From assembly GCF_001425575.1 (NCBI RefSeq), contig NZ_LMRD01000006.1:693977-757976 (forward strand): a DNA stretch of 64,000 nt. The letters are read 5' to 3'. The position numbers and the translations under genes are program-made. The notes under the pieces were generated by a model. That model had not been told where the DNA came from, made no database searches, and saw nothing but the letters and a program-made list of their open reading frames with translations. The DNA is from Aurantimonas sp. Leaf443 (lineage in GTDB: Bacteria; Pseudomonadota; Alphaproteobacteria; Rhizobiales; Rhizobiaceae). Positions 2,797 to 19,694 of the stretch are shown here, piece after piece; position 1 is the first letter of the stretch, and every line of letters begins with the position of its first letter.

Positions 2797-3906
2797 TCAG
2801 CTCGCTCCGGCTTCGGTGAAGCGCTCGTCTTCCCAGCGGAAGGCGCGGTAGAGGTCGAGGGTCGAATCGCCCTTCGCATCGAACCGGATGGGGCCGAGGA
2901 CGGTGCGGAACGTCGCGCCGGACAGGATTTCGGGCAGTGGGCGGTCGAGGTCGCGCGCCTGCCCGATCGTCTGGAGGGCGATCTCCGTCGCCGCGAAGGC
3001 CGGCCCGTAATAGCCGTAGGGGCCGGGTTCGGCGGCGTCCGGGTCCTCCGGCGTGCCGGCCGGGCGCAGTTCGGGGAAGCGGTTCTTGGGGCCGACGGCG
3101 ATCGTGCCTGCGGGAAGCGGCAGGGCCGGGTCGCCCTCGTCGAAGAGCTTCTCGCCGCCGACGATCTCCAGCGCCAGTCCGTTGGAGGCGGCGTCGCGGG
3201 CGATGGTGGCGACGTCCGGCCGTTCGCCGACGACCAGGAAACGCGTGACGCCGCTGCGCTGGAGACGGCGGACGAGGCCGAACTGTTTCTCCTCCGCCGG
3301 CCGGAAGGTCTCGAGGATGGAGGGTTGCAGGCCCTGTTCGGAGAGGAGCCGGCGGACCGTGTCCACCAGCGTCCGCGCCTCGATGGAGCCGTCCTCGACG
3401 AGGCCGAAGGGCTGATCCGTCCAGCGCGCGACGATGGTGCGCGCGAGCGCGCTCGCCTCGGCATCGGAGCGCGGCGCGACGCGCCAGACGAGATGGCCGG
3501 TGCGGGCGCGCTCGTCGGTCAGGCGATTGGCCCGCACGCCGACGTTGAGCGTCGGAATGCCGGCCGCCTGCAGGATCGGCAAGGCGGCCTCGATCTCCTC
3601 CGAGCACAGGAAGCCGACGACGATCTCCACCTTCTCCGCCACGAATCGCTCGGCCGCCGCACGCCCGCCCTCGGCCGTGCAGGCCGTGTCGGCTTCCACG
3701 AGACGCGGCACCGCGTCCGGGCCGAGACGCGCGGCCGCCGCCCGCACGCCGTCGGCGATCTGCCGGCCGAGAAGCGCCTGCGCGCCCTCCAGCGGCGCGG
3801 CGATGCCGATGGCGGCCGGCGCGCCACGATCCTGGCCGAGGGCCGGCGCCGCCGGGAGCCCCGCGACCTGCGCCACGACGAGACTGAGGAAGAGAAGGTT
3901 ACGCAT
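2797..3906 (-). CDS. ABC transporter substrate-binding protein, LivJ-like type 1 fold
   Basis: A 369-residue periplasmic binding protein resembling branched-chain amino-acid (LivJ/Peripla_BP_6) receptors. A signal peptide covers about residues 1-24 (ending APALGQ). The mature part opens with IGIAAPLEGAQALLGRQIADGVRAA, the usual start of this fold, followed by a two-lobe pattern with VEIVVGFLCSEEIEAALPIL and GPYGYYGPAFAATEIAL. No permease or ATPase lies beside it; instead the P1 peptidase follows within 4 bp. It may serve a transporter encoded elsewhere, or act as a sensory binding protein. The ligand cannot be predicted. The start codon at 3906 is fixed by the signal peptide. Confidence 0.85.
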   Translation of the reverse strand: MRNLLFLSLVVAQVAGLPAAPALGQDRGAPAAIGIAAPLEGAQALLGRQIADGVRAAAARLGPDAVPRLVEADTACTAEGGRAAAERFVAEKVEIVVGFLCSEEIEAALPILQAAGIPTLNVGVRANRLTDERARTGHLVWRVAPRSDAEASALARTIVARWTDQPFGLVEDGSIEARTLVDTVRRLLSEQGLQPSILETFRPAEEKQFGLVRRLQRSGVTRFLVVGERPDVATIARDAASNGLALEIVGGEKLFDEGDPALPLPAGTIAVGPKNRFPELRPAGTPEDPDAAEPGPYGYYGPAFAATEIALQTIGQARDLDRPLPEILSGATFRTVLGPIRFDAKGDSTLDLYRAFRWEDERFTEAGAS

Positions 3907-4059: not shown

Positions 4060-4587
4060 ATGCCGCCGCCACGCCTTCGGACGGATCTCGACTTGCTGAC
4101 GCTCTCCACCATCGATCCGGCACGGTTCCGCAGTGCCATGAGCCGCTTCCCAGCGGCGGTGTGTCTCGTGACGACGGACGGCCCGGCGGGGCGGCGCGGC
4201 CTTACCGTCTCCTCGGTCGCCCCCGTCTCCGACGATCCGGCGACGCTGCTCGTGTGTCTCAACACGGCGAGCGTGGCGAACGAGAAATTCGTCAAGAACG
4301 GCAACTTCGCCGTCAGCGTCCTCGGCGTCGAGACGGAAGCCGTGGCGCGGGGTTTCGCGGGCGAGGGGAAGCTCGAGTCCGACGCGCGCTTCGCGCTCGG
4401 GGCGTGGTCCGCGCTGGAGACGGGCGCGCCGCTTCTCGACGGCGCGCTGATCGGCTTCGACTGCCGGCTGACCGGGTCGAGCACCGTCGCCACCCATCGC
4501 ATCCTCATCGGCACGGTGGCCGCCATCCGAATGGGGCCGGCCTCGCCCTCTTTGGTCTATCTCGACCGGCAATATCGCAGCCTCTAG
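4060..4587 (+). CDS. Flavin reductase domain protein
   Basis: A 175-residue flavin reductase-like protein of the FMN-binding split-barrel type (PF01613), about the normal length. The core motif is clear: MSRFPAAVCLVTTDGPAGRRGLTVSSVAPVS is followed by DDPATLLVCLN and the NFAVSVLG strand. Members supply reduced FMN/FAD to a partner monooxygenase or bind flavin themselves. The ATG at 4060 is the best start; an in-frame ATG at 3925 would add an Arg-rich tail unlike the family, so it is not used. The gene lies 37 bp upstream of the MoxR ATPase on the same strand and may be first in that operon. Partner and substrate are unknown. Confidence 0.82.
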   Translation: MPPPRLRTDLDLLTLSTIDPARFRSAMSRFPAAVCLVTTDGPAGRRGLTVSSVAPVSDDPATLLVCLNTASVANEKFVKNGNFAVSVLGVETEAVARGFAGEGKLESDARFALGAWSALETGAPLLDGALIGFDCRLTGSSTVATHRILIGTVAAIRMGPASPSLVYLDRQYRSL

Positions 4588-4624
4588 TCTCGCCGCTCGC
4601 CCGAACGGGAAGGACAGATATCCA

Positions 4625-5542
4625 GTGACCGCCACGCTGCCCCAATCGATCGACGAGACCGCCCGCCTCCTGGACGAAGGCGGCTACGTCGCCGACCGCG
4701 CGCTGGCGACCGTCCTCTTCCTGTCCCTGAAGATGGGCCGTCCGCTCTTCCTCGAAGGCGAGGCCGGCGTCGGCAAGACCGAGATCGCAAAGGTTCTGGC
4801 CCATGCGCTCGGGCGGCCGCTGATCCGGCTGCAATGCTACGAGGGGCTCGACGTCTCCTCGGCGCTCTACGAATGGAACTATGCCGCGCAGATGATCGAG
4901 ATCCGCCTGCGCGAGGCGTCCGGCGACACGTCGAAGGATGCCACGCGCTCCGAGATCTTCTCCGAGCGATTCCTGATCCGGCGCCCGATCCTGCAGGCGC
5001 TGGAGGGAGAGCCGGGGCGGGCGCCCGTGCTCCTCATCGACGAGCTGGACCGCACGGACGAGGCCTTCGAGGCCTTCCTCCTCGAGATCCTCTCCGACAA
5101 TCAGGTCACGATCCCCGAACTCGGCACGATCCGCGCCGCCGAGCCGCCGATCGTCATCATCACCACCAATCGCACGCGCGAGATCCACGACGCGTTGAAG
5201 CGGCGCTGCCTCTATCACTGGGTCGACTACCCGGACGCCCAGCGCGAACTCGCGATCGTCAGGCGCAAGGCGCCGAACGCCAATGCGGACCTTGCCGCCG
5301 AACTCGTCGCCTTCGTGCAGCGTCTGCGCGGGATCGACCTGTTCAAGTCGCCGGGCGTCGCCGAGACGATCGACTGGGCGAACGCGCTGACCGAACTCAA
5401 CGCGCTCGCCCTGGACCCGGCGCATGTCTCCGATACGCTCGGCGTTCTCCTGAAGTACCAGGACGACATCCAGCGCATGGAGCGCGGCGAGGGGCGCGAG
5501 ATCCTGGCCGACGTGAAGCGCGAGCTGGCGAAGGCCTCCTGA
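4625..5542 (+). CDS. MoxR family AAA+ ATPase (CoxD-like)
   Basis: A 305-residue MoxR-type AAA+ ATPase, most like CoxD, the chaperone that helps assemble the [CuSMoO2] centre of aerobic CO dehydrogenase. The Walker A motif GEAGVGKT covers residues 45-52 and the Walker B motif LLIDELD has its acidic pair at D139/E140. Sensor 1 reads IITTNRTRE and the sensor 2 region follows KRRCLYHWVDYP. The start is GTG at 4625. It is followed after 1 bp by the VWA protein gene, the invariant partner of MoxR ATPases. The name CoxD is inferred from this order plus the downstream XdhC and MoeA/MobA-like genes; no CO dehydrogenase subunit is in the window. Confidence 0.9.
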   Translation: MTATLPQSIDETARLLDEGGYVADRALATVLFLSLKMGRPLFLEGEAGVGKTEIAKVLAHALGRPLIRLQCYEGLDVSSALYEWNYAAQMIEIRLREASGDTSKDATRSEIFSERFLIRRPILQALEGEPGRAPVLLIDELDRTDEAFEAFLLEILSDNQVTIPELGTIRAAEPPIVIITTNRTREIHDALKRRCLYHWVDYPDAQRELAIVRRKAPNANADLAAELVAFVQRLRGIDLFKSPGVAETIDWANALTELNALALDPAHVSDTLGVLLKYQDDIQRMERGEGREILADVKRELAKAS

Positions 5543-5543
5543 G

Positions 5544-6794
5544 ATGCGGTCGGGCGAAGCTCCGGGCGAGGCCGACCCGCAGGGCAAGCTCGCCGACAAT
5601 ATCGCCTATTTCGCCCGCGCCCTGCGCAAGGCCGGTCTGAAGCTCGGCCCTTCGGCGACGCTGGACGCGATCGAGGCCGTGAAGGCGGCGGGGCTCTCGA
5701 CGCGCGACGACTTCTACTGGACGCTCCACGCCGTCCTCGTCTCGCGCCGCGAGGACGACGCGGTCTTCTCCGAAGCCTTCCGCCTGTTCTGGCGCTCGCG
5801 CGATCTCATCGAGAAGATGATCGCGATGTTCTCGCCGCGCGCGCCCGAGCGGCCCGCCGCGCCCGAGAAGAAGCGCGCCGGCGAGAGCCGGGCCGCCGAC
5901 GCCTTCTTCGAAGGCGCCAGGGACCGCGTCACGCCGCAGGAGCGGCCGGAGGTCGAGATCGATTCGAGCCTCACCGTCTCGGGCAACGAGGTGCTGCGGC
6001 AGAAGGATTTCGCCCAGATGACCGCCCGCGAGGTGGAGGAGGCGCGCCGCGAGATCGGCCGGCTGCGCCTGCCCGCCGACCTCGTCTTGACGCGCCGGTT
6101 CCGGCCGGACGCCAGGGGCGAGCGGATCGACCCGCGCGCCATGATGCGGGCCTCCATGCGCACGGGCGGCGACCTCGTTCTGCCGAAATTCCGCACGCGG
6201 CGCGCGGTGCATCCCCCGCTCGTCGTCATCGCCGACATTTCCGGCTCGATGACCCAGTACACCCGCATCGTCCTGCATTTCCTGCACGCGCTCACCGAGA
6301 AGCGGCGCCACGTGCACACGTTTCTCTTCGGCACGCGCCTCACCAACGTGACGCGCCAGATGCGCCGCAAGGACCCGGACGAGGCGCTGGCCGACTGCGC
6401 CGAGGCCGTGAAGGACTGGTCCGGCGGCACGCGCATCGGCGAGGCGCTGCGGCTGTTCAACCATGGCTGGTCACGCCGCGTGCTGACGCAGGGCGCCGTG
6501 GTGCTGCTCATCACGGATGGGCTGGAGCGCGACTCGATCGAGGATCTGGAAGCGGAGATGGAGCGGCTGCACAAGTCGTGCCGCAAGCTGATCTGGCTGA
6601 ACCCGCTGCTGCGCTTCGACGGGTTTTCGGCCCGCGCCAAGGGCGTGCGGGCCATGCTGCCGCATGTCGACGAGTTCCGTTCGGTTCATTCGCTGGAGGC
6701 GATCGAGGCGCTCTGCCGGGCGTTGGGGCCGGACGGCGACCGGATCGCCGATCCCCGCGCCTGGCTGCAGGCCGCCGACCGCGCGGCGGCGTGA
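5544..6794 (+). CDS. VWA domain containing CoxE-like protein
   Basis: A 416-residue protein of the CoxE family (VWA_CoxE, PF05762). CoxE works with the CoxD ATPase to mature the CO dehydrogenase active site. The N-terminal half is helical and charged; the C-terminal half is a von Willebrand A domain with the MIDAS motif DISGS at residues 231-235 (D231, S233, S235) and the later acidic LLITDGLERD. The middle carries the Arg-rich LVLTRRFRPDARGERIDPRAMMRASMR typical of the family. Its start follows the MoxR stop by 1 bp, so the pair is translationally coupled. Confidence 0.9.
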   Translation: MRSGEAPGEADPQGKLADNIAYFARALRKAGLKLGPSATLDAIEAVKAAGLSTRDDFYWTLHAVLVSRREDDAVFSEAFRLFWRSRDLIEKMIAMFSPRAPERPAAPEKKRAGESRAADAFFEGARDRVTPQERPEVEIDSSLTVSGNEVLRQKDFAQMTAREVEEARREIGRLRLPADLVLTRRFRPDARGERIDPRAMMRASMRTGGDLVLPKFRTRRAVHPPLVVIADISGSMTQYTRIVLHFLHALTEKRRHVHTFLFGTRLTNVTRQMRRKDPDEALADCAEAVKDWSGGTRIGEALRLFNHGWSRRVLTQGAVVLLITDGLERDSIEDLEAEMERLHKSCRKLIWLNPLLRFDGFSARAKGVRAMLPHVDEFRSVHSLEAIEALCRALGPDGDRIADPRAWLQAADRAAA

Positions 6795-6819
6795 TGCGGC
6801 CTTTCGAAGGAGACACGCC

Positions 6820-7158
6820 ATGAGCGACGCCATTCGCGACCTCGACGTCCTGACCACCGCGGAGGCCTGGGCGCGGGAAGGGCGGCGCATCGCGCTCGCC
6901 ACCGTCGTGGAGACCTGGGGGTCCGCGCCGCGCCCGACGGGCAGCCATCTCGTCATCGACGCGGCGGGCAATTTCGAAGGCTCGGTCTCGGGCGGCTGCG
7001 TGGAGGGCGCGGTGGTCGCCGAGGCCGTCGACGTGATCGAGGCGGGCCGGCCGAAGATGCTCGAGTTCGGCGTCGCCGACGAGACGGCCTGGCGCGTCGG
7101 CCTCTCCTGCGGCGGGCGCATCCGCGTCTTCGTCGAACCCGTCGCCGGAGCCCTCTGA
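6820..7158 (+). CDS. XdhC/CoxI family protein, N-terminal domain only
   Basis: A 112-residue protein matching only the N-terminal XdhC_CoxI domain (PF02625). XdhC binds molybdenum cofactor and helps insert its sulfurated form into xanthine dehydrogenase-type enzymes. Conserved stretches are ATVVETWGSAPRPTGSHLVI and SVSGGCVEGAVVAEA, including the glycine-cysteine turn. The C-terminal Rossmann half is encoded separately by the next gene, whose ATG overlaps this stop in an ATGA (7156-7160). Such splitting into two proteins is common in Cox-type clusters. The ATG at 6820 is preceded by AAGGAG at good distance. Confidence 0.9.
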   Translation: MSDAIRDLDVLTTAEAWAREGRRIALATVVETWGSAPRPTGSHLVIDAAGNFEGSVSGGCVEGAVVAEAVDVIEAGRPKMLEFGVADETAWRVGLSCGGRIRVFVEPVAGAL

Positions 7159-7874
7159 TGGAGGCCTCGCTCCTCCAGGCGTTGAACGGCGAGCGGGCGG
7201 CCCGCCGCGCCGCGGTTCTCGTCACCGACGTCTCGACCGGCCGCCAGCGCCTCGTGCGCGAGGCCGCGATCGCGGCCGATCCCCTGGCCGATGCGGTCGG
7301 CAAGGTGCTGCGCAGCGGCAAGTCGCAGATGGTGGCGGGGCCGGAAGGCGAGATCTTCCTCAACGCCCATCTGCCGCCGCCGCGCATCGTCGTGATCGGG
7401 GCCGTGCATGTGAGCCAGGCGCTCGCGCCGATGGCGCGGCTGGCCGGCTACGATGTCGAGATCGTCGATCCGCGCACCGCCTTCGCGACGCCCGAGCGCT
7501 TCGAGGGCGTGACGCTGCATGCCGAATGGCCGCAGGACGTTCTCGCCGCGCGCCCGCTCGACGCCTATACCGCGCTCTGCGCCATCACCCACGACCCGAA
7601 GATCGACGATCTCCCGCTGATCGAGGCGCTGAAGGCCGGCTGCTTCTATGTCGGCGCGCTCGGCAGCCGGAAGACGCATGCCGGCCGCGTCGAGCGCCTG
7701 ATGCAGGCGGGCGTCGCCGAGTCGGCGCTGGCTCGGATCGAGGCGCCGATCGGTGCCGATATCGGGGCCTCGACGCCCGGCGAGATCGCCGTCGCGATCC
7801 TCGCCTCCGTCATCGAGGCCTTCCGCAAGCGCAAGATGTTCGCCGAGCGACGCGGCGAGACGCCCGCCGCATGA
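7158..7874 (+). CDS. XdhC family protein, C-terminal Rossmann domain
   Basis: A 238-residue protein with the XdhC Rossmann domain (PF13478). It begins after an N-terminal stretch of about 75 residues and reads PPPRIVVIGAVHVSQALAPMARLAGYDVEIVDPR. The family motif YVGALGSRKTHAGRVERL and the end motif APIGADIGASTPGEIAVAI are present. The nucleotide-binding turn reads GAVHVS rather than the usual GAGHVG. Start and stop both overlap neighbours by ATGA (7158 and 7871-7874), so it is made together with the N-terminal XdhC half and the MoeA/MobA-like fusion. Likely role: carrying or sulfurating molybdenum cofactor for a molybdenum hydroxylase. Confidence 0.9.
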   Translation: MEASLLQALNGERAARRAAVLVTDVSTGRQRLVREAAIAADPLADAVGKVLRSGKSQMVAGPEGEIFLNAHLPPPRIVVIGAVHVSQALAPMARLAGYDVEIVDPRTAFATPERFEGVTLHAEWPQDVLAARPLDAYTALCAITHDPKIDDLPLIEALKAGCFYVGALGSRKTHAGRVERLMQAGVAESALARIEAPIGADIGASTPGEIAVAILASVIEAFRKRKMFAERRGETPAA

Positions 7875-9532
7875 GGTTCGGGCCGGTCTCCCTCGACGCT
7901 GCCGAAGGCGCCATCCTCGCCCATTCGCAGGCGACGCCCTCCGGCCGCGTGAAGAAGGGGGCACGGCTCGGGACGGCCGAGATCGCGGCCTTGCGCGACG
8001 CGGGCCTGACCGAGGTCGTCGCCGCCACCCTTGCCGACGGCGACCTGACGGAGGACGAGGCGGCCGGCCGCATCGGTGCCGCTCTCGCCTTGGGCGGCCT
8101 GCGGGCGGGCCCGGCCACGACCGGCCGCGTCAATCTCTTCGCCGAGGCAGCCGGCCTGTTCCTGGCGGACCGGGCCCAGGTGGACGCGGTGAACGCCGTG
8201 GACGACGCGATCACCCTCGCGACGCTGCCGGACCATGCGAGCGTGGACGAAGGCCGCATGGTCGCGACGGTCAAGATCATTCCGCTCGCCGTGCCCGGCG
8301 CCTCGGTGGCGAGGGTGCTGGCCGTTCTCGGCGAAGGGCCGGCCTTCCGCCTCGCGCCGTTCCGCCCGCGCGGCGTCGCGCTCGTCCAGACCGAGCTTGC
8401 GACCGTCAAGCCCAGCGTCCTCGACAAGACGCGCGCCGTCACGGAAGCGCGGCTGGCCGCGTCCGGCTCGCGCATCGTCTGCGAGCGGCGCTGCGCGCAC
8501 GAGCGCGACGCGCTGGCGGCCATGCTTTTTCTGCCGGAGGTCGCGGCCGCCGACCTCGTCCTCGTCTTCGGCGCCTCCGCCGTCATCGACGCGGCGGACG
8601 TCATTCCGGCCGCGATCGAGGCGGCGGGCGGTTCCGTCGCCCATCTCGGCATGCCCGTCGATCCCGGCAATCTCCTGCTTCTGGGCGAGATCGACGGCCG
8701 TCCTGTGCTGGGGGCGCCCGGCTGTGCGCGCAGCCCGAAGGAGAATGGGTTCGACTGGGTGCTCGACCGGCTCCTCGCCGATCGTCCGGTTCTCGGAGAC
8801 GACATCCGGCGCATGGGAGTCGGCGGGCTCCTGATGGAGATCGCCAGCCGCCCGCAGCCCCGCGAGGCGGGCGAGGCGGACGACGAGCCGGGCGGCGGCG
8901 AAGGGCGGATCGACATCGTTCTCCTCGCGGCCGGGCGCTCGTCGCGCATGGGCGGCACGAACAAACTGCTTCAGACCTTCGGCGGCGAACCTCTCGTCCG
9001 GCGCTCCGCACGCACGGCCCTCGATGCGCTCGGCCGGCTCGGCGAAAGGGGCGGCACGTTGCGGATCGTCACCGGCGCGTCGCGCGCGGAGATCGCGGCC
9101 GCGCTCGAGGGCGTCGAGGCCGAGCGGCTCGACAATCCCGATGCCGCAGCCGGGCTCTCGACCTCGCTGAAGCTCGGTTTCTCCGCGAGCGTCGCCGCCG
9201 GCGCCGCGGGCGTTCTCGTGATGCTCGCGGACCAGCCGCTGCTGACGGCCGAGGACCTCCTGACGCTCGCCGACGCGTTCGAGCCGGTCGGCGAGGGATC
9301 GATCGTGGTGGCGACCGATCGCGGCCGGCGCGCCAATCCCGTCATCCTCTCCGGCCGCTTCGCCCCGCTCGTCGCCGCTCTGTCCGGCGATGTCGGCGCG
9401 CGGGACATCGTCGCGGGGCACCGCGACCTCGTGCGCGAGGTGGAGCTGGGAACCGCCGCCGGGCTCGACGTGGACACGCCGCAGGCCATGGACGAGGCGC
9501 TGGCGCTCTTCGAGACCGGCGCAGACCGCTGA
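7871..9532 (+). CDS. Molybdopterin-binding (MoeA-like) / MobA-like NTP transferase fusion
   Basis: A 553-residue two-domain protein. About residues 1-330 form a MoeA/MoaB-like molybdopterin-binding domain, with LVFGASAVIDAADVIPAAI and the end motif HLGMPVDPGNLLLLGEIDGRPVLGAPGCARSPKENGFD written here only as a positional guide to residues 255-300. After a glycine-rich linker, residues 345-553 form a nucleotidyltransferase (NTP_transf_3, MobA/MocA-like) starting IVLLAAGRSSRMGGTNKLL. The protein probably makes the cytidylylated dinucleotide form of molybdenum cofactor needed by CO/xanthine dehydrogenase-type enzymes. Its start overlaps the XdhC stop (ATGA). It is the last gene of the cassette. 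Confidence 0.88.
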   Translation: MRFGPVSLDAAEGAILAHSQATPSGRVKKGARLGTAEIAALRDAGLTEVVAATLADGDLTEDEAAGRIGAALALGGLRAGPATTGRVNLFAEAAGLFLADRAQVDAVNAVDDAITLATLPDHASVDEGRMVATVKIIPLAVPGASVARVLAVLGEGPAFRLAPFRPRGVALVQTELATVKPSVLDKTRAVTEARLAASGSRIVCERRCAHERDALAAMLFLPEVAAADLVLVFGASAVIDAADVIPAAIEAAGGSVAHLGMPVDPGNLLLLGEIDGRPVLGAPGCARSPKENGFDWVLDRLLADRPVLGDDIRRMGVGGLLMEIASRPQPREAGEADDEPGGGEGRIDIVLLAAGRSSRMGGTNKLLQTFGGEPLVRRSARTALDALGRLGERGGTLRIVTGASRAEIAAALEGVEAERLDNPDAAAGLSTSLKLGFSASVAAGAAGVLVMLADQPLLTAEDLLTLADAFEPVGEGSIVVATDRGRRANPVILSGRFAPLVAALSGDVGARDIVAGHRDLVREVELGTAAGLDVDTPQAMDEALALFETGADR

Positions 9533-14621: not shown

Positions 14622-16463
14622 TCAGGCCTTGACGCGGACATAGGAGCCAGGCGCGTCCTCGATCGGCTTCAGCTTGGAGCCGCCGGGCTTTCGCGCCTTG
14701 ACCCGCGTATCGTCGAGCCCCTCGATCCAGGCCTGCCAGTGCGGCCACCAGGAGCCCTTGGTCTCCTGCGCGTCGAGGAGCCAGTCCTCGTAGGCGCGGC
14801 CCCTCTCGGGCGCCGGTCCGGTCCAGTACTGGTACTTGTTCTTGTCCGGCGGATTGACGACCCCGGCGATGTGGCCCGACCCGCTGAGGACATAGGTCAC
14901 GTCCGAGCCGAAAGCGCTCGACCCGACATAGACGCTGCGCGCCGGGGCGATATGGTCTTCCTTGGTGGCGAGATTGTAGATGGGGACCGTGACCGTCGAG
15001 AGATCCAGGCGCTTGCCGCCGAGCTCCATCGTGCCTTGCGAGAGGCGGTTCTCCAGGTAGCAGTTGCGCAGGTAGTAGAGGTGGTTGGCCTTGGCCATCC
15101 GCGTCGAGTCGGCATTCCAGTAGAGAAGGTCGAAGGGCAGCGGCTCCTTGCCCTTCAGATAGTTGTTGACGAAATAGGGCCAGATGAGATCGCCCGAGCG
15201 GAGCATGTTGAAGGCCGTCGCCATCTTCGATCCTTCGAGATAGCCGCGCGCGCCGATCGTCTTCTCCAGCGTCTTCAGCTGGTTCTCGTCCACGAAGACC
15301 TTGAGGTCGCCGGCGTAGGTGAAGTCGATCTGGGTCGTCAGGAAGGTGGCCGAGGCGATCCGCTCGTCGCCGCGCGCCTTCAGATGGGCGAGCGAGGCGC
15401 CGAGCAACGTGCCGCCGACGCAGTAGCCGATCGTGTTGACCTGCGTCTCGCCGGTCGCCGCCTCGATCGTGTCGAGGCCGAAGGCGATCCCCTTGTCGAT
15501 ATAGTCCTCCCAGTCCATCGCCGCGTGGCGCTCGTCCGGGTTCACCCAGGAGATGACGAAGACGGTGTGCCCCTTCTCGACCATCCAGCGGATGAAGGAC
15601 TTCTCGGCATTGAGATCGAGGATGTAGAACTTGTTGATCCAGGGCGGGCAGATAAGGAGCGGGCGCTTCAGGACCGTCGGCGTGGAGGCCGCGTACTGGA
15701 TGATCTGGCAGACCTCGTTCTGCGCGACGACCTTGCCGGGCGTCGTGGCCATGTCGCGCCCGACCTCGAAGCGGGAATGGTCGGACTGGCGCACCTTCAG
15801 ATTGCCGCGCCCGGCCGCGATGTCCTCGGCCAGCATCTTCATGCCGCGCACGAGGTTCTCGCCGTTGGATGCAACCGTCTCGCTGTAGAGCTCGGGATTG
15901 GTGAGGACGAAGTTCGACGGCGAGAGCGCGTTGGTGATTTGCTTCATGTAGAACTGCGCCTTGTGGCGCGTGTGCGGATCGAGGTCGCGCGCGTCCTCCA
16001 CGAGGCTCTCGGCCCAGTCCGACGTCAGCATGTAGGTCTGGCGCAGGAAGTCGAAGAAGAGGTTGCGGCTCCAGTCCTCGTGGCTGAAGCGCTTGTCGGC
16101 CGGAACGGGGGCTGCGGGCTCCTCGCCCGACAGGCGGCGGATCGAATTGGTCCAGATGCCCATGAAGCCGGCGAAGAGATTGGTCTGCGCCTCGAGCGCG
16201 CGCGCGGGATCGCTCAGCCAGTACTCGCCGACCTTGGACAGCGTCGAGACCATCTCGCCCATGCCGATGGGCTGGGTGTCGACGAACTCGCCCTTCTCGC
16301 GCGGCTCGACCCAGGCGGAGGCCGCCTTGCCCAGCTGTTCCAGCGTGCGCGCCATGTTGCGCGCGAAGGCCTCCGGATCCTTGACGACGTATTTCTCGTG
16401 GGCGGCGAACTCGGCCTCGAAGGGCGGCGCCGCGCCAGCTGCGGCGGGACCTTTGCGATCCAT
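14622..16463 (-). CDS. phaC: Class I poly(3-hydroxyalkanoate) synthase
   Basis: A 613-residue class I PHA synthase, which polymerises (R)-3-hydroxyacyl-CoA into storage polyester at granule surfaces. The catalytic triad is visible: C348 in the lipase-like box GYCVGG (346-351), D503 in KEDHIAP and H531 in SGSGHIAG. Family sequences [18 protein letters not shown] and the C-terminal [17 protein letters not shown] are intact. The ATG at 16463 is preferred because GGGAGG lies 9 bp upstream; an ATG at 16472 would touch that ribosome binding site. No phasin or phaA/phaB lies next to it. An inverted repeat at 16564-16583 lies in its upstream region. Confidence 0.96.
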
Positions 16464-16563
16464 CTCGTACATCCTCCCGAGCGCGTTCCGGTCGTGGGCG
16501 GCGCCGGTCCCCGGTCTTGTCGCCCACCGCGTCATTCGGCCCGCATTGTGATCCGGGCCCGTG

Positions 16564-16583
16564 CGTTCGGCAATCGCCGAACG
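16564..16583. promoter_or_regulatory. Perfect inverted repeat between phaC and the divergent lipoprotein gene
   Basis: CGTTCGGC (16564-16571), a 4-bp spacer AATC and GCCGAACG (16576-16583) form a perfect 8-bp inverted repeat. It lies 101 bp upstream of the phaC start and 70 bp before the lipoprotein start. There is no gene reading into it from the left on the plus strand, so an operator is more likely than a terminator. The regulator is unknown. Confidence 0.5.
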
Positions 16584-16589
16584 ATCCTT

Positions 16590-16618
16590 TTGTATTCGTC
16601 GATCCGCTAGGATATGAG
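16590..16618 (+). promoter_or_regulatory. Candidate promoter of the lipoprotein gene
   Basis: TTGTAT (16590-16595), a 17-bp spacer and TATGAG (16613-16618) form a moderate sigma-70-like promoter. If real, the ATG at 16614 is part of the -10 box and cannot be the start, which favours 16653. Confidence 0.35.
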
Positions 16619-16652
16619 ACGGACGATCCGCCGCTTTAAGGGCTCGCGAGCC

Positions 16653-17087
16653 ATGGTCCGTCCGTCGATTCTGCGCTTTCTGGCCCTGGCCGCCTCGCTG
16701 GCGCCGATGGCCGGGTGCCAATCCTTCCTGAATAAGGACGATGCGCCCGATCCGCAACTTGCGCGCGCGAACGCCCTGCCGCCCGTCGCCTCGACGCAGC
16801 GCCTCGACAAGGACGGCTATCCGCTGCTCGGCGCCTATCCGTCGAGCGCGGCCCCGCAGCTGAGCGACGCGGAGGTGACGGGGCAGGAGCGCAGCCTGTC
16901 GACGCGCGTCGTCCCGGCAGCGGGAGCGGCCAATACCGCCGCCTACGACGCCAAGGTGGCGCAGGCGCGGGCGGTGCGAGCTAGACAGGCCGCCGAGGTG
17001 GACAAGGCGCTGGCCGGCACGTCCGGCCCCATGACGCAGCCCTCCGACCCGGCGGCCGTTCGGCAGGAAATCGAAAACGGCGCCTGA
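16653..17087 (+). CDS. Small hypothetical lipoprotein
   Basis: A 144-residue putative lipoprotein. The signal sequence [22 protein letters not shown] ends in a lipobox-like MAGC, with the Cys at residue 22, so it is probably lipid-anchored in the envelope. The mature part is hydrophilic and Ala-rich, with [23 protein letters not shown], and has no domain I recognise. An upstream ATG at 16614 is possible but overlaps a promoter-like -10 box. It precedes the aminotransferase by 55 bp on the same strand. Confidence 0.75.
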
Positions 17088-17142
17088 GGTCGCGCCGTCC
17101 CGTTCACGACACCACGTCCGGCCGCGCCGGGGATCGAAGTCC

Positions 17143-18360
17143 ATGGAAGAATTCCACAAAGTCCGCCGCCTGCCGCCCTACGTCTTCGAGGAGGTCAACA
17201 AGAAGAAGGCCGCCGCCCGCTCGCGCGGGGTCGACATCGTCGATCTGGGCATGGGAAATCCCGACCTGCCCACGCCCAAATTCGTCGTCGACAAGCTCTG
17301 CGAGGCCGTGCGCGACCCGCGCACCCACCGCTATTCGGCGTCCAAGGGCATTGCCGGCCTTCGCCGCGCGCAGGCCGCCTATTACAAGCGCCGCTTCGGC
17401 GTGACGCTGAACCCGGACACCGAGGTCGTGGCGACGATGGGCTCGAAGGAGGGCTTCGCCAACATGGCGCAGGCCATCACCGCGCCCGGCGACGTCGTTC
17501 TCTGCCCGAACCCGACCTATCCGATCCACGCCTTCGGCTTCCTCATGGCCGGCGGCACGATCCGCTCGATCCCCGCCAAGCCCGACGAGGACTTCCTGCG
17601 CGCGATCGACCGCGCCGTGCGCCACTCGATCCCCAAGCCGCTGGCGATCATCCTGAACTACCCGTCGAACCCGACGGCCTACGAGGCCGATCTCGATTTC
17701 TACGCCGAAGTCGTGAAGTTCGCCCGCGAGAACGAGGTCATCATCCTCTCCGACCTCGCCTATTCGGAGATCTACTTCGACGGCACCCCGCCGCCCTCCG
17801 TTCTGCAGGTGCCCGGCGCGATGGACGTGACGGTGGAGTTCACCTCCATGTCGAAGACCTTCTCCATGCCCGGCTGGCGCATCGGCTTCGCGGTCGGCAA
17901 CGCGCGGCTGCTCTCGGCGCTCGCGCGGGTGAAGTCCTATCTCGACTACGGCTCGTTCACGCCCGTCCAGGTCGCCGGCACGGCGGCGCTCAACGCCGGC
18001 GACGAGGCGGTGAAGGAGGTGCGCGACATCTACCGCCACCGCCGCGACGTGCTCGTGGAGTCCTTCGGTCGCGCCGGGTGGGAGGTGCCGCCTCCGTCCT
18101 CGACCATGTTCGCCTGGGTGCCGATCCCGGAGGCCTATCGCGCCATGGGCTCGATCGAGTTCGCCAAGCTCCTGATCGACAAGGCGGACGTCGCGGTGTC
18201 GCCGGGCGTCGGCTTCGGCGAGTACGGCGACGACCACGTGCGCATCGCGCTCGTCGAGAACGAGCACCGCATCCGCCAGGCGGCGCGCAACATCCGCCGC
18301 TTCCTCACCGCCGAGTCCGGCGCCGCACGCGAACCTGCGGCCGCCGGCGCCCGGCGCTGA
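17143..18360 (+). CDS. Class I/II PLP-dependent aminotransferase (AlaC/DapL-like)
   Basis: A 405-residue fold-type I aminotransferase of the group often named LL-diaminopimelate aminotransferase or AlaC-like glutamate-pyruvate transaminase in alphaproteobacteria. The PLP lysine is K238 in [16 protein letters not shown]; other markers are [22 protein letters not shown] and [12 protein letters not shown]. It is followed 29 bp later by homoserine dehydrogenase, an arrangement conserved in this order, so a role in aspartate-family or alanine metabolism is likely. The exact substrate cannot be set from sequence. Confidence 0.92.
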
Positions 18361-18389
18361 CAGACCCTTCCGAGAAGACTGACACCATC

Positions 18390-19694
18390 ATGAACAGCCC
18401 CCTGCGGCTCGGCATCGCCGGGCTCGGTACCGTCGGTGCGAGCCTTGCCCGTCTCATCGAGACCAAGCGCCAGACGCTGGAGCACCGCGTCGGGCGCAGC
18501 CTGACGATCGCCGCCGTCTCGGCGCGCGACGCGTCGAAGGACCGGGGCGTCGATCTGTCGGCGGCCCGCTTCTTCGCCGATCCCGTGGCGCTGGCGCGCG
18601 ACGGCGAGATCGACGTGTTCGTAGAGCTCGTCGGCGGATCGGACGGCGCGGCGCTGGACTCGGTGCGCGCGGCCCTGTCGCGCGGCATTCCGGTCGTCAC
18701 CGCCAACAAGGCGCTGCTCGCCTATCACGGCATGGCGCTGGCCGAACTGGCGACGGCCAACGGCACGGAAATCCTCTTCGAGGCGGCGGTCGCCGGCGGC
18801 ATCCCCGTCATCAAGACGATGCGCGAGGCCCTGTCGGGCAACGACGTGAAGCGCGTCTACGGCATCCTCAACGGCACCTGCAACTACATGCTGACCCGCA
18901 TGGAGAAGGAGGGCATCGCCTTCGACGACTGCCTGAAGGACGCCCAGCGCCTCGGCTATGCCGAGGCCGATCCGACCTTCGACATCGGCGGCTTCGACGC
19001 CGGCCACAAGCTGGCGCTCCTCACCTCGCTCGCCTTCGGCTGCGCGATCGACCTCGACTCGGTCTTCATCGAGGGGATCGAGGCGGTGACGCTCGACGAT
19101 ATCCGCGCGGCGGCCGAACTCGGCTACCGCATCAAGCTCCTCGCCGTCGCGCAGCGCACCGAGAGCGGCATCGAACAGCGCGTCCACCCGGCCATGGTGC
19201 CGGCGGGTTCGGCCATCGCGCGCGTCGACGGCGTGACCAACGCGGTGGCGATCGACACGGACCTTCTCGGTTCGATCCTCCTCGCCGGTCCGGGCGCCGG
19301 CGGAAATGCCACCGCTTCGGCCGTCCTCTCCGACATCATGGACGTGGCGACCGGCTTCGTGCCGCCGACCTTCGGCGTGCCGCCGGAGAAGCTGTCGCCC
19401 TACAGACGCGCGCGGATGCGGGCGCATGAAGGCGGTTATTACATCCGCCTGTCCGTGCAGGACCGGGTCGGCGCCTTCGCCTCGATCGCGCAGCGCATGG
19501 CCGAGCACCGGATCTCGCTGGAATCGATCGTCCAGCGCCGCGCGCCGGGCGCTGCCGCCGACACGGCCGCGCCGGTCATCCTCATCACCCACGAGACGAG
19601 CGAGGAAGCCGTCCGCAACGCTCTTGCCGCCGTCTCGCAGGACGGGCACCTGACGGACGAGCCCAAGATGATCCGCATCGAGCCGCTGAAATAG
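18390..19694 (+). CDS. hom: Homoserine dehydrogenase
   Basis: A 434-residue homoserine dehydrogenase, which reduces aspartate semialdehyde to homoserine for Thr and Met synthesis. The NAD(P) motif GIAGLGTVGASL is at the N-terminus. The catalytic domain shows NGTCNYMLTRME and GYAEADPTFDIGGFDAGHK. The C-terminal ACT domain (YYIRLSVQDRVGAFASIAQRMAEHRISLESIVQ) probably binds Thr for feedback control. The ATG at 18390 directly begins the Rossmann fold. Operon position: after the aminotransferase, 78 bp before glpX. Confidence 0.97.
   Translation: MNSPLRLGIAGLGTVGASLARLIETKRQTLEHRVGRSLTIAAVSARDASKDRGVDLSAARFFADPVALARDGEIDVFVELVGGSDGAALDSVRAALSRGIPVVTANKALLAYHGMALAELATANGTEILFEAAVAGGIPVIKTMREALSGNDVKRVYGILNGTCNYMLTRMEKEGIAFDDCLKDAQRLGYAEADPTFDIGGFDAGHKLALLTSLAFGCAIDLDSVFIEGIEAVTLDDIRAAAELGYRIKLLAVAQRTESGIEQRVHPAMVPAGSAIARVDGVTNAVAIDTDLLGSILLAGPGAGGNATASAVLSDIMDVATGFVPPTFGVPPEKLSPYRRARMRAHEGGYYIRLSVQDRVGAFASIAQRMAEHRISLESIVQRRAPGAAADTAAPVILITHETSEEAVRNALAAVSQDGHLTDEPKMIRIEPLK

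What the first reader, a model, noticed from the sequence alone, without database searches (positions are those of the whole stretch)
4060..9532. Orphan CO-dehydrogenase-type maturation cassette
A flavin reductase, MoxR ATPase, CoxE-like VWA, split XdhC and a MoeA-like/MobA-like fusion form one tightly coupled operon (several ATGA overlaps). This set matures molybdenum hydroxylases, yet no CoxL, CoxM, CoxS or other large/medium/small subunit is within 4 kb on either side. Either the enzyme lies elsewhere, or the cassette serves a different molybdenum enzyme with a flavin reductase partner.
Basis: partly seen in the sequence, partly recalled or inferred. Interest (0 to 1): 0.55.

Follow-up and report, generated by a model that had tools for sequence, protein, structure and literature searches.

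The report
Detached maturation genes for CO-dehydrogenase-like enzyme
These genes look like the assembly kit for a molybdenum enzyme that resembles CO dehydrogenase (the unproven "form II" type) and is encoded elsewhere in the genome; in many relatives kit and enzyme sit side by side, and the two are almost always found together.

Summary
In detail: window 4060-9532 encodes flavin reductase, MoxR AAA+, CoxE VWA, split XdhC and a MoeA-like::MocA-like fusion on one strand, and no molybdenum-hydroxylase large subunit lies on the same contig. The cassette is not ownerless. The genome has six large subunits elsewhere; one is a bare form II coxS-L-M (AYRGAGR, contig C1), and this cassette holds the genome's only full CoxE. 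Of 199 genomes of the order, 97 have this form II CoxL and all 97 have this CoxE; 5 have CoxE without it, 97 neither. In 35 of the 97, CoxL and CoxE still lie within 8 kb; eight such loci read show one cluster coxS-L-M-MoxR-CoxE-XdhC-XdhC-MoeA::MocA. The 5 exceptions all carry another AYRGAGR large subunit that stands alone; the query has it too, so it may be a second client. One family keeps coxS-coxM beside the cassette without coxL. Best reading: a trans-acting maturation module for form II (not form I, copper-type) enzymes, detached in the query's lineage. Linked form II coxDE operons are already published; I found no report of the detached layout, the near-perfect co-occurrence or the solo subunit. 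The flavin reductase is a conserved neighbour, not a shown partner.

The parts
4060..4587 (+). flavin reductase (PF01613; RutF/HpaC-like, below the RutF cut-off); conserved upstream neighbour, role not shown
   Evidence: RutF 152.9 bits, cut-off 254.75; 61 of 71 named loci with >3 kb upstream have it <200 nt upstream of MoxR
4625..5542 (+). MoxR-type AAA+ ATPase, CoxD-like (GTG start)
5544..6794 (+). CoxE-like VWA protein with MIDAS residues (D231, S233, S235, T296, D325) invariant in 19 sequences
   Evidence: the only full-length CoxE in the genome
6820..7158 (+). XdhC N-terminal half (XdhC_CoxI, PF02625), separate gene
   Evidence: separate hit in relatives
7158..7874 (+). XdhC C-terminal Rossmann half (PF13478)
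7871..9532 (+). fusion: MoeA/gephyrin-E-like Mo-insertase domain (aa 1-about 325) plus MocA/MobA-like nucleotidyltransferase (aa about 345-553)
   Evidence: (TIGR03310 MocA 100 bits, below cut-off 186)
2797..3906 (-). solitary periplasmic binding protein (Peripla_BP_6), divergent; conserved flank, role unknown
   Evidence: 58 of 71 named loci

Best explanation
The cassette is the dedicated post-translational maturation set of the form II CO-dehydrogenase-like molybdenum hydroxylase encoded on another contig (coxS-coxL-coxM, C1:148911-152758), and probably also of a second, solo AYRGAGR large subunit (C1:488634-490910). Proposed steps: the MoeA-like::MocA-like fusion inserts molybdate and adds CMP to make the MCD cofactor; the split XdhC holds, sulfurates and delivers the cofactor; MoxR and CoxE (an ATPase-VWA pair) remodel the folded apoenzyme so that its active site is completed. 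Shown here: gene content, single-copy CoxE, the remote bare coxSLM, co-occurrence, linked clusters in relatives, folds. Inferred from families: every biochemical step. The XdhC and fusion parts are probably shared with other molybdenum hydroxylases; MoxR-CoxE is the dedicated part.
For: (1) Genome: 6 large subunits, none on C6; form II coxSLM, AYRGAGR, flanked by Omp85, histidine-kinase and TctCBA genes, no accessory gene among the five ORFs read; one full CoxE (the other hit is 33 bits over less than half the profile); 2 XdhC, the other beside XDH and XDH-type. (2) 199 order genomes: CoxE 102, CoxL-II 97, both 97, CoxE only 5, CoxL-II only 0, neither 97, phi 0.95. Control XdhB: both 79, CoxE only 23, XdhB only 34, neither 63, phi 0.43. 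(3) 347 Pseudomonadota genomes: CoxE 71, CoxL-II 74, both 71 (51 not in the order sample, 37 outside the order). (4) CoxL-II and CoxE lie within 8 kb on one strand in 35 of 97 and within 15 kb on one strand in 23 of 51 new phylum genomes; gene order read directly. (5) All 5 CoxE-without-CoxL-II genomes have the solo large subunit, so 102 of 102 CoxE genomes have one of the two; 77 of 78 solo-subunit genomes have CoxE. (6) One family (f29): in 6 of 6 loci read, the cassette keeps coxS and coxM of the linked type in open frames without coxL, while the complete coxSLM lies elsewhere and its CoxL is of the remote type, so cassette and enzyme must work apart there.
Against: No expression, knock-out or biochemical data. 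Co-occurrence counts genomes, not independent events, although 13 families hold genomes with both and with neither (by eye). MoeA::MocA is in 12 genomes without CoxE, so that half is not specific. G459 has CoxL-II and no CoxE match at all; G349 has only a more distant CoxE on another contig. G053 has the solo subunit and the fusion but no CoxE. The query also has four other molybdenum hydroxylases that could use XdhC and MocA. In print, coxG is called the usually indispensable form II accessory gene and coxD, E, F the variable ones (PMC5747140 passage), which runs against a strict need for CoxE; the cassette has no CoxG and I did not search for CoxG genome-wide. Form II function is unresolved in print.
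Confidence: 0.83

Rival explanations
1. General-purpose set: the cassette matures all the molybdenum hydroxylases of the cell (XDH, PaoC-like, the distant C1:99k enzyme) rather than form II in particular.
For: Only two XdhC genes exist and the fusion is the best MocA candidate (the next-best NTP_transf_3 hit is MobA-like), so XdhC and MocA are probably shared; the fusion occurs in 12 of 199 genomes without CoxE.
Against: 34 of 113 XdhB genomes lack CoxE; 164 of 199 genomes have some relative of the large subunit at E<=1e-20 but only 102 have this CoxE; MoxR-CoxE tracks AYRGAGR large subunits.
Confidence: 0.12
2. Relic or redundant copy left after loss of a neighbouring coxSLM, no longer needed.
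For: Its coxSLM is gone from the site; in f29 coxL alone is missing from it.
Against: Open frames, 50-70% CoxE identity across many families, MIDAS residues invariant in 19 sequences, conserved order in named relatives (68 to 70 of 73 for the downstream genes), and no second full CoxE in the query.
Confidence: 0.03
3. Flavin-reductase-centred system: the reductase and the cassette serve one new enzyme together.
For: Flavin reductase <200 nt upstream of MoxR on the same strand in 61 of 71 near named loci; next to the cassette in the four f34 genomes lacking form II CoxL; more loosely upstream of MoxR in five further loci (L066, L092, L095, L108, L113).
Against: Of the linked coxSLM loci read only L073 has a flavin-reductase hit, 1.95 kb upstream of coxS with a glyoxalase gene and an opposite-strand CMD gene between; in three f11 loci (L060, L061, L117) it is on the other strand; the 80 named loci are the closest relatives only.
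Confidence: 0.1
4. The main client is the solo AYRGAGR large subunit, and coxSLM supplies its small and medium subunits.
For: Solo subunit in 78 of 199, 77 with CoxE; no CoxS or CoxM hit at E<=1e-5 in 15 of 15 loci of 16.5 to 20 kb; all 7 f29 genomes with CoxE in the order sample have it and the 6 f29 loci read keep a coxS-coxM pair beside the cassette.
Against: 25 CoxE genomes lack it and have form II CoxL; no evidence of subunit sharing; at the base rate of 72 of 97, five of five exceptions having it could be luck, and four of them are one genus.
Confidence: 0.15

Closest known systems
coxDEF accessory genes of form I CO dehydrogenase, Oligotropha carboxidovorans (PMC4240915 abstract and passages; PMC3471820 passages)
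   Same: MoxR AAA+ (CoxD), VWA with MIDAS (CoxE) and XdhC-like protein (CoxF), in this order.
   Different: There clustered with coxMSL and needed for sulfur, then copper, in [CuSMoO2]; here beside no enzyme, XdhC split in two genes, plus MoeA::MocA; the presumed client has AYRGAGR instead of the form I motif.
Linked form II coxSLM-coxDE(GI) operons (Cupriavidus metallidurans CH34, PMC2864759 passage; Rubrivivax gelatinosus, PMC10434068 and PMC4257681 passages)
   Same: Gene order coxSLM followed by coxD and coxE.
   Different: In the query and 61 others of the 97 sampled genomes cassette and coxSLM are apart; a split XdhC and the MoeA::MocA fusion follow in most loci of the order studied here. 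R. gelatinosus is not called form II in the passages I saw; that is inferred from its gene order.
XdhC/MocA maturation of xanthine-oxidase-family enzymes (PMC2997495 passages)
   Same: XdhC chaperone and cytidylyltransferase side by side.
   Different: XdhC split into two genes; MocA-like domain fused to a Mo-insertase-like domain; MoxR-CoxE present.

Membership tests
Form I (copper) CO dehydrogenase system | CoxL with AYRCSFR in the genome | tested here: not met
   6 large subunits; the two CoxL-like ones both have AYRGAGR; a motif scan that would have caught AYRCSFR found no other match in the stretches holding the other four
Form I (copper) CO dehydrogenase system | coxDEF accessory genes beside coxMSL | tested here: not met
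   no large subunit on the same contig; the CoxL set found with S and M is ordered S-L-M
Form II coxSLM accessory module | order coxS-L-M and AYRGAGR in the partner enzyme | tested here: met
   AYRGAGR in 38 of 38 CoxL extracted from loci of the order
Form II coxSLM accessory module | MoxR and CoxE co-occur with form II CoxL | tested here: met
   CoxE in 97 of 97 of the order sample, 71 of 74 of the phylum sample at fixed cut-offs; of the 3, G331 has a CoxE 2.3 kb away. MoxR itself was seen only in loci read, not counted genome-wide
Form II coxSLM accessory module | physical linkage to coxSLM | tested here: not met
   not in the query; in 35 of 97 order genomes
Form II coxSLM accessory module | coxG (called usually indispensable in PMC5747140) | tested here: inconclusive
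   not in the cassette nor among five ORFs read beside the query's coxSLM; no genome-wide search for CoxG
CoxE/VWA-MoxR pair | MIDAS DxSxS...T...D and Walker A | tested here: met
   the assignment of T296 and D325 to the MIDAS is recalled
MoeA/gephyrin E Mo-insertase (N-terminal half of fusion) | MoeA/MogA fold | tested here: met
   Foldseek ranks 1-47 are MoeA, gephyrin E or Cnx1E, E 1.2e-6 to 4e-4, but TM only 0.2-0.3 over the whole chain; MogA/MoaB-like core Z about 12, rmsd about 3, about 135 aligned; by sequence only 1uz5 MoeA E=0.003
MocA cytidylyltransferase (C-terminal half of fusion) | curated MocA model above cut-off; CTP specificity | tested here: inconclusive
   TIGR03310 best hit, 100.4 bits against cut-off 186.45; nearest folds Mth528, Rv0371c, Q97W15_SULSO; nucleotide not testable
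any | maturation activity on CoxSLM | not testable with these tools
   needs mutants and purified enzyme

The most novel reading that the evidence does not exclude
A trans-acting maturation module with two clients: the remote form II coxSLM and a solo AYRGAGR large subunit that borrows CoxS/CoxM from elsewhere (in f29, from the coxS-coxM pair kept beside the cassette). Because form II enzymes lack the form I AYRCSFR motif yet never occur without this CoxE in the order sample, the original job of the CoxD/CoxE pair would not be copper insertion but opening or finishing the molybdenum site.
Probability: 0.3. Interest if true: 0.65.

Novelty: new variant of a known kind. Interest (0 to 1): 0.45.

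Why it matters
Form II CO dehydrogenases are widespread and their substrate is unresolved in print. The papers of which I saw passages describe their accessory genes as variable or list coxSLM only; a detached cassette would explain why they look bare, and gives a defined gene set to delete or co-express when testing what form II does. It also sets a puzzle: in O. carboxidovorans the coxE mutant enzyme has sulfur but lacks copper (PMC3471820 passage), whereas here CoxE accompanies enzymes without the form I copper-type motif. Annotators would otherwise file the cassette as an orphan or as form I CODH.

Tried and rejected
Rejected: form I CODH (no AYRCSFR found). Redundant copy (CoxE single). 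An XDH cassette: XDH has its own XdhC, 276 bits against a cut-off of 161.6, and 34 of 113 XdhB genomes lack CoxE. The weak CoxE hit at C6:438929 (33 bits) lies on a stretch with a 33%-identical MoxR (L078): taken as another MoxR-VWA pair.

Led nowhere: first tblastn with window genes against the loci around the six large subunits gave no hits. That test is blunt: it and one search also missed the XDH's own XdhC, which the Pfam search finds there; so the absence of accessory genes beside coxSLM rests. The full-length fusion model let the MocA half fill both fold lists, so the N-terminal half was folded alone. Wrong frames for the second NTP-transferase gave no family; the right frame best matches MobA, 138 bits, just under its cut-off of 152. 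The other nine NTP_transf_3 matches were not assigned, so 'only MocA' is not claimed. My 'Phr' query was out of frame (13 stops) and its hits are not used. No promoter comparison between cassette and coxSLM was made.

Rows dropped before counts: CoxE matches under 290 bits (other subfamilies; gap 293 to 181 bits; 6 of the 108 genomes with any match at E<=1e-10 fall out so); CoxL second copies and all under 1022 bits (G103 has a 413-aa partial at 79%, counted as absent); three weak XdhB rows G131, G151, G053; MoeA::MocA rows under 290 bits. The phylum cut-off for CoxL (E 1e-230) is looser and lets in hits of 55-59% identity, of the kind dropped as second copies in the order sample. In many genomes only the best 3 to 9 first-look candidates were scored. 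L076 and L087 fell out of the CoxL tree by my score filter. The 13 mixed families were counted by eye.

Print: searches showed no paper on a detached form II cassette or the solo large subunit; the library lacks most subscription journals, and I saw only listings, one abstract and passages.
Full report
What is there. Window 4060-9532 (+ strand) holds a flavin reductase, a MoxR-type AAA+ ATPase, a CoxE-like VWA protein, XdhC split into two genes, and a fusion of a MoeA-like and a MocA-like domain. The N-terminal half of the fusion has no Pfam match, but its AlphaFold2 model (mean pLDDT 90.8) has MoeA, gephyrin E and Cnx1E as Foldseek ranks 1-47 (low whole-chain TM), and its core aligns to MogA/MoaB structures at Z about 12, rmsd about 3. 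The C-terminal half is a MobA/MocA-like nucleotidyltransferase; its best NCBIfam model is MocA, below cut-off.

Where is the enzyme? The genome (3.9 Mb, 13 contigs, 99.9% complete) has six molybdenum-hydroxylase large subunits, on C1, C7 and C8 and none on C6, which holds the window. By family models they are an XDH (C7:179-182k; TIGR02965 1238 bits), two PaoC-like below the PaoC cut-off (C7:228k and C8:342k), one distant member on C1:99k, and two with AYRGAGR: a coxS-L-M set at C1:148.9-152.8k and a solo large subunit at C1:488.6-490.9k, 43% identical to the first. CoxE occurs once at full length, in the window; XdhC occurs twice, in the window and beside XDH. Around the coxSLM the five other ORFs I picked encode an Omp85 protein, a histidine kinase and a TctCBA transporter, no accessory protein. 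MoxR, CoxG and the small and medium subunits were not searched genome-wide.

Co-occurrence. Over 199 genomes of the order (192 of them at least 90% complete and at most 5% contaminated), this CoxE subfamily is in 102 and this form II CoxL in 97: both 97, CoxE only 5, CoxL only 0, neither 97 (phi 0.95). As control, XDH's XdhB (113 genomes after dropping three weak rows) gives 79, 23, 34, 63 (phi 0.43). The MoeA::MocA fusion (111) gives with CoxE 99 both, 12 fusion only, 3 CoxE only, 85 neither, so that half is less specific. By eye, 13 families hold genomes with both genes and genomes with neither, so this is not one shared ancestry. In a 347-genome Pseudomonadota sample, with cut-offs E 1e-60 and 1e-230, CoxE is in 71, CoxL-II in 74, both in 71; 51 of the 71 were not in the order sample and 37 lie outside the order. 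The CoxL cut-off is looser there and admits 55-59% identity. Of the three CoxL-only genomes, G331 does have a CoxE 2.3 kb from its CoxL, G349 only a more distant CoxE on another contig, and G459 (1.2 Mb) none.

Linkage. CoxE and CoxL-II lie on one strand within 8 kb in 35 of 97 order genomes and within 15 kb in 23 of 51 new phylum genomes. Read directly, the linked cluster is coxS-L-M-MoxR-CoxE-XdhC-XdhC-MoeA::MocA in eight loci, L069-L074, L088 and L096 (in L096 with a gap of 5.9 kb before MoxR); L076 has the same order up to the second XdhC, and in L075 the order is rearranged. The other 62 are apart, or on other contigs (G033 has both within 6.2 kb but on opposite strands); they include the query and the other 6 counted genomes of its family. 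In a CoxL tree of 38 sequences the remote set separates from the linked set with support 1.0, except for one linked sequence, L075. In some lineages the cassette itself has broken up: the fusion is within 15 kb of CoxE in 67 of 99 genomes, near CoxL only in 3 (1.1 to 9.7 kb), and alone in 29.

The exceptions. The five CoxE genomes without full CoxL-II (G034, G068, G098, G122 of one genus; G103 with a partial CoxL) all have the solo large subunit, so 102 of 102 CoxE genomes have at least one of the two enzymes; 77 of 78 solo-subunit genomes have CoxE, the miss being G053. Since 72 of 97 CoxL-II genomes also have it, five of five alone is weak; among the 102 genomes without CoxL-II, the solo subunit goes with CoxE in 5 of 6 and its absence with no CoxE in 96 of 96. 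In 15 of 15 loci read the solo subunit has AYRGAGR and no CoxS or CoxM hit at E<=1e-5 beside it.

A natural separation. In family f29, six of six loci read (L064, L103-L107; the seventh genome with CoxE, G097, was not fetched; an eighth member, G066, has neither gene) hold coxS-coxM-MoxR-CoxE-XdhC-XdhC-MoeA::MocA with coxL missing between coxS and coxM; both small genes lie in open frames. In FastTree trees those CoxS and CoxM group with the linked type, while the CoxL of f29's complete coxSLM elsewhere groups with the remote type, and its CoxS and CoxM do not join the residual copies (the CoxM and CoxS trees are otherwise poorly sorted into linked and remote). I read this as cassette and enzyme working in trans, with the kept coxS-coxM pair possibly serving the solo subunit.

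Near relatives. A named scan (best 80 of 588 hits, hence biased to close relatives such as Aurantimonas, Jiella, Mesorhizobium, Sinorhizobium and Rhizobium) shows the query layout: flavin reductase under 200 nt upstream of MoxR in 61 of 71 loci with enough sequence, a divergent periplasmic binding protein in 58 of 71, XdhC halves in 70 of 73 each, the MocA domain in 68 of 73, and CoxL in 2 of 80. The flavin reductase is thus a conserved neighbour in this clade. Among the linked clusters read, only L073 has one in the stretch, 1.95 kb upstream of coxS with a glyoxalase gene and an opposite-strand CMD gene between. Its role is open.

How it probably works. By homology to O. carboxidovorans, CoxD drives sulfuration and, with CoxE and CoxF, copper insertion (PMC4240915 abstract; PMC3471820 passages). 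XdhC-type chaperones hold and deliver sulfurated cofactor, and MocA makes MCD (PMC2997495 passages). Here the fusion would insert Mo and add CMP, split XdhC would deliver the cofactor, and MoxR-CoxE would finish the site of folded CoxSLM. All of this is inferred. The form II motif AYRGAGR was seen in 38 of 38 CoxL extracted; that the cysteine of the form I motif is the copper ligand is recalled knowledge, from which it would follow that CoxE here has some role other than copper.

What is known. Linked form II coxSLM with coxD and coxE is in print for C. metallidurans (PMC2864759 passage), and a coxSLM operon with coxD and coxE for R. gelatinosus (PMC10434068, PMC4257681 passages). In R. gelatinosus a coxL mutant lost an NBT-reducing complex, the aldehydes tested did not change its activity, and a CoxI/XdhC-like protein was detected with the complex (PMC10434068 passages). 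Form II activity is called unresolved or doubtful (PMC13240472, PMC12021596, PMC6794299, PMC5747140; passages), though PMC2864759 cites Bradyrhizobium japonicum USDA 110 as relying on it alone for CO oxidation. PMC5747140 calls coxG the usually indispensable form II accessory gene and coxD, E, F less so, which is against a strict need for CoxE; my counts disagree for CoxE, and CoxG I did not count. The Aminobacter paper names coxSLM alone for form II (PMC8235418 passage). I found no report of the detached cassette or the solo large subunit.

Verdict. A real, conserved, detached maturation cassette for form II coxSLM, with a likely second client; ordinary in its parts, new in layout and in how tightly it tracks form II.

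Noticed in passing
L010:7635-9911 (G000:C1:488634-490910): Solo AYRGAGR large subunit, 43% to CoxL, with no CoxS or CoxM hit beside it in 15 of 15 loci read; in 78 of 199 order genomes, 77 of them with CoxE.
   Followed up: partly
L064, L103-L107 (family f29): coxS-coxM kept in open frames beside the cassette with coxL missing between them, in 6 of 6 loci read; a full coxSLM lies elsewhere.
   Followed up: partly
window 2797-3906 (-): Solitary Peripla_BP_6 protein, divergent from the cassette, conserved in 58 of 71 named loci; PBP-like hits also lie beside MoxR-CoxE in some other families.
   Followed up: no
L089 and L090 (G124): The linked operon is broken between MoxR (left with coxSLM) and CoxE (left with XdhC and the fusion) on two contigs.
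   Followed up: no
G175, G051, G082: Where the cassette has broken up, the MoeA::MocA fusion lies 1.1 to 9.7 kb from coxL instead of CoxE.
   Followed up: no
L009:12838-14742 and 16315-19675: A Cache-domain histidine kinase and a TctCBA tricarboxylate-type transporter follow the query's coxSLM on the same strand; possible hints to regulation or substrate, not examined in relatives.
   Followed up: no
window 7158-7874: The XdhC Rossmann half reads GAVH where I recall GAGH in other XdhC proteins (translation; the comparison is from memory).
   Followed up: no
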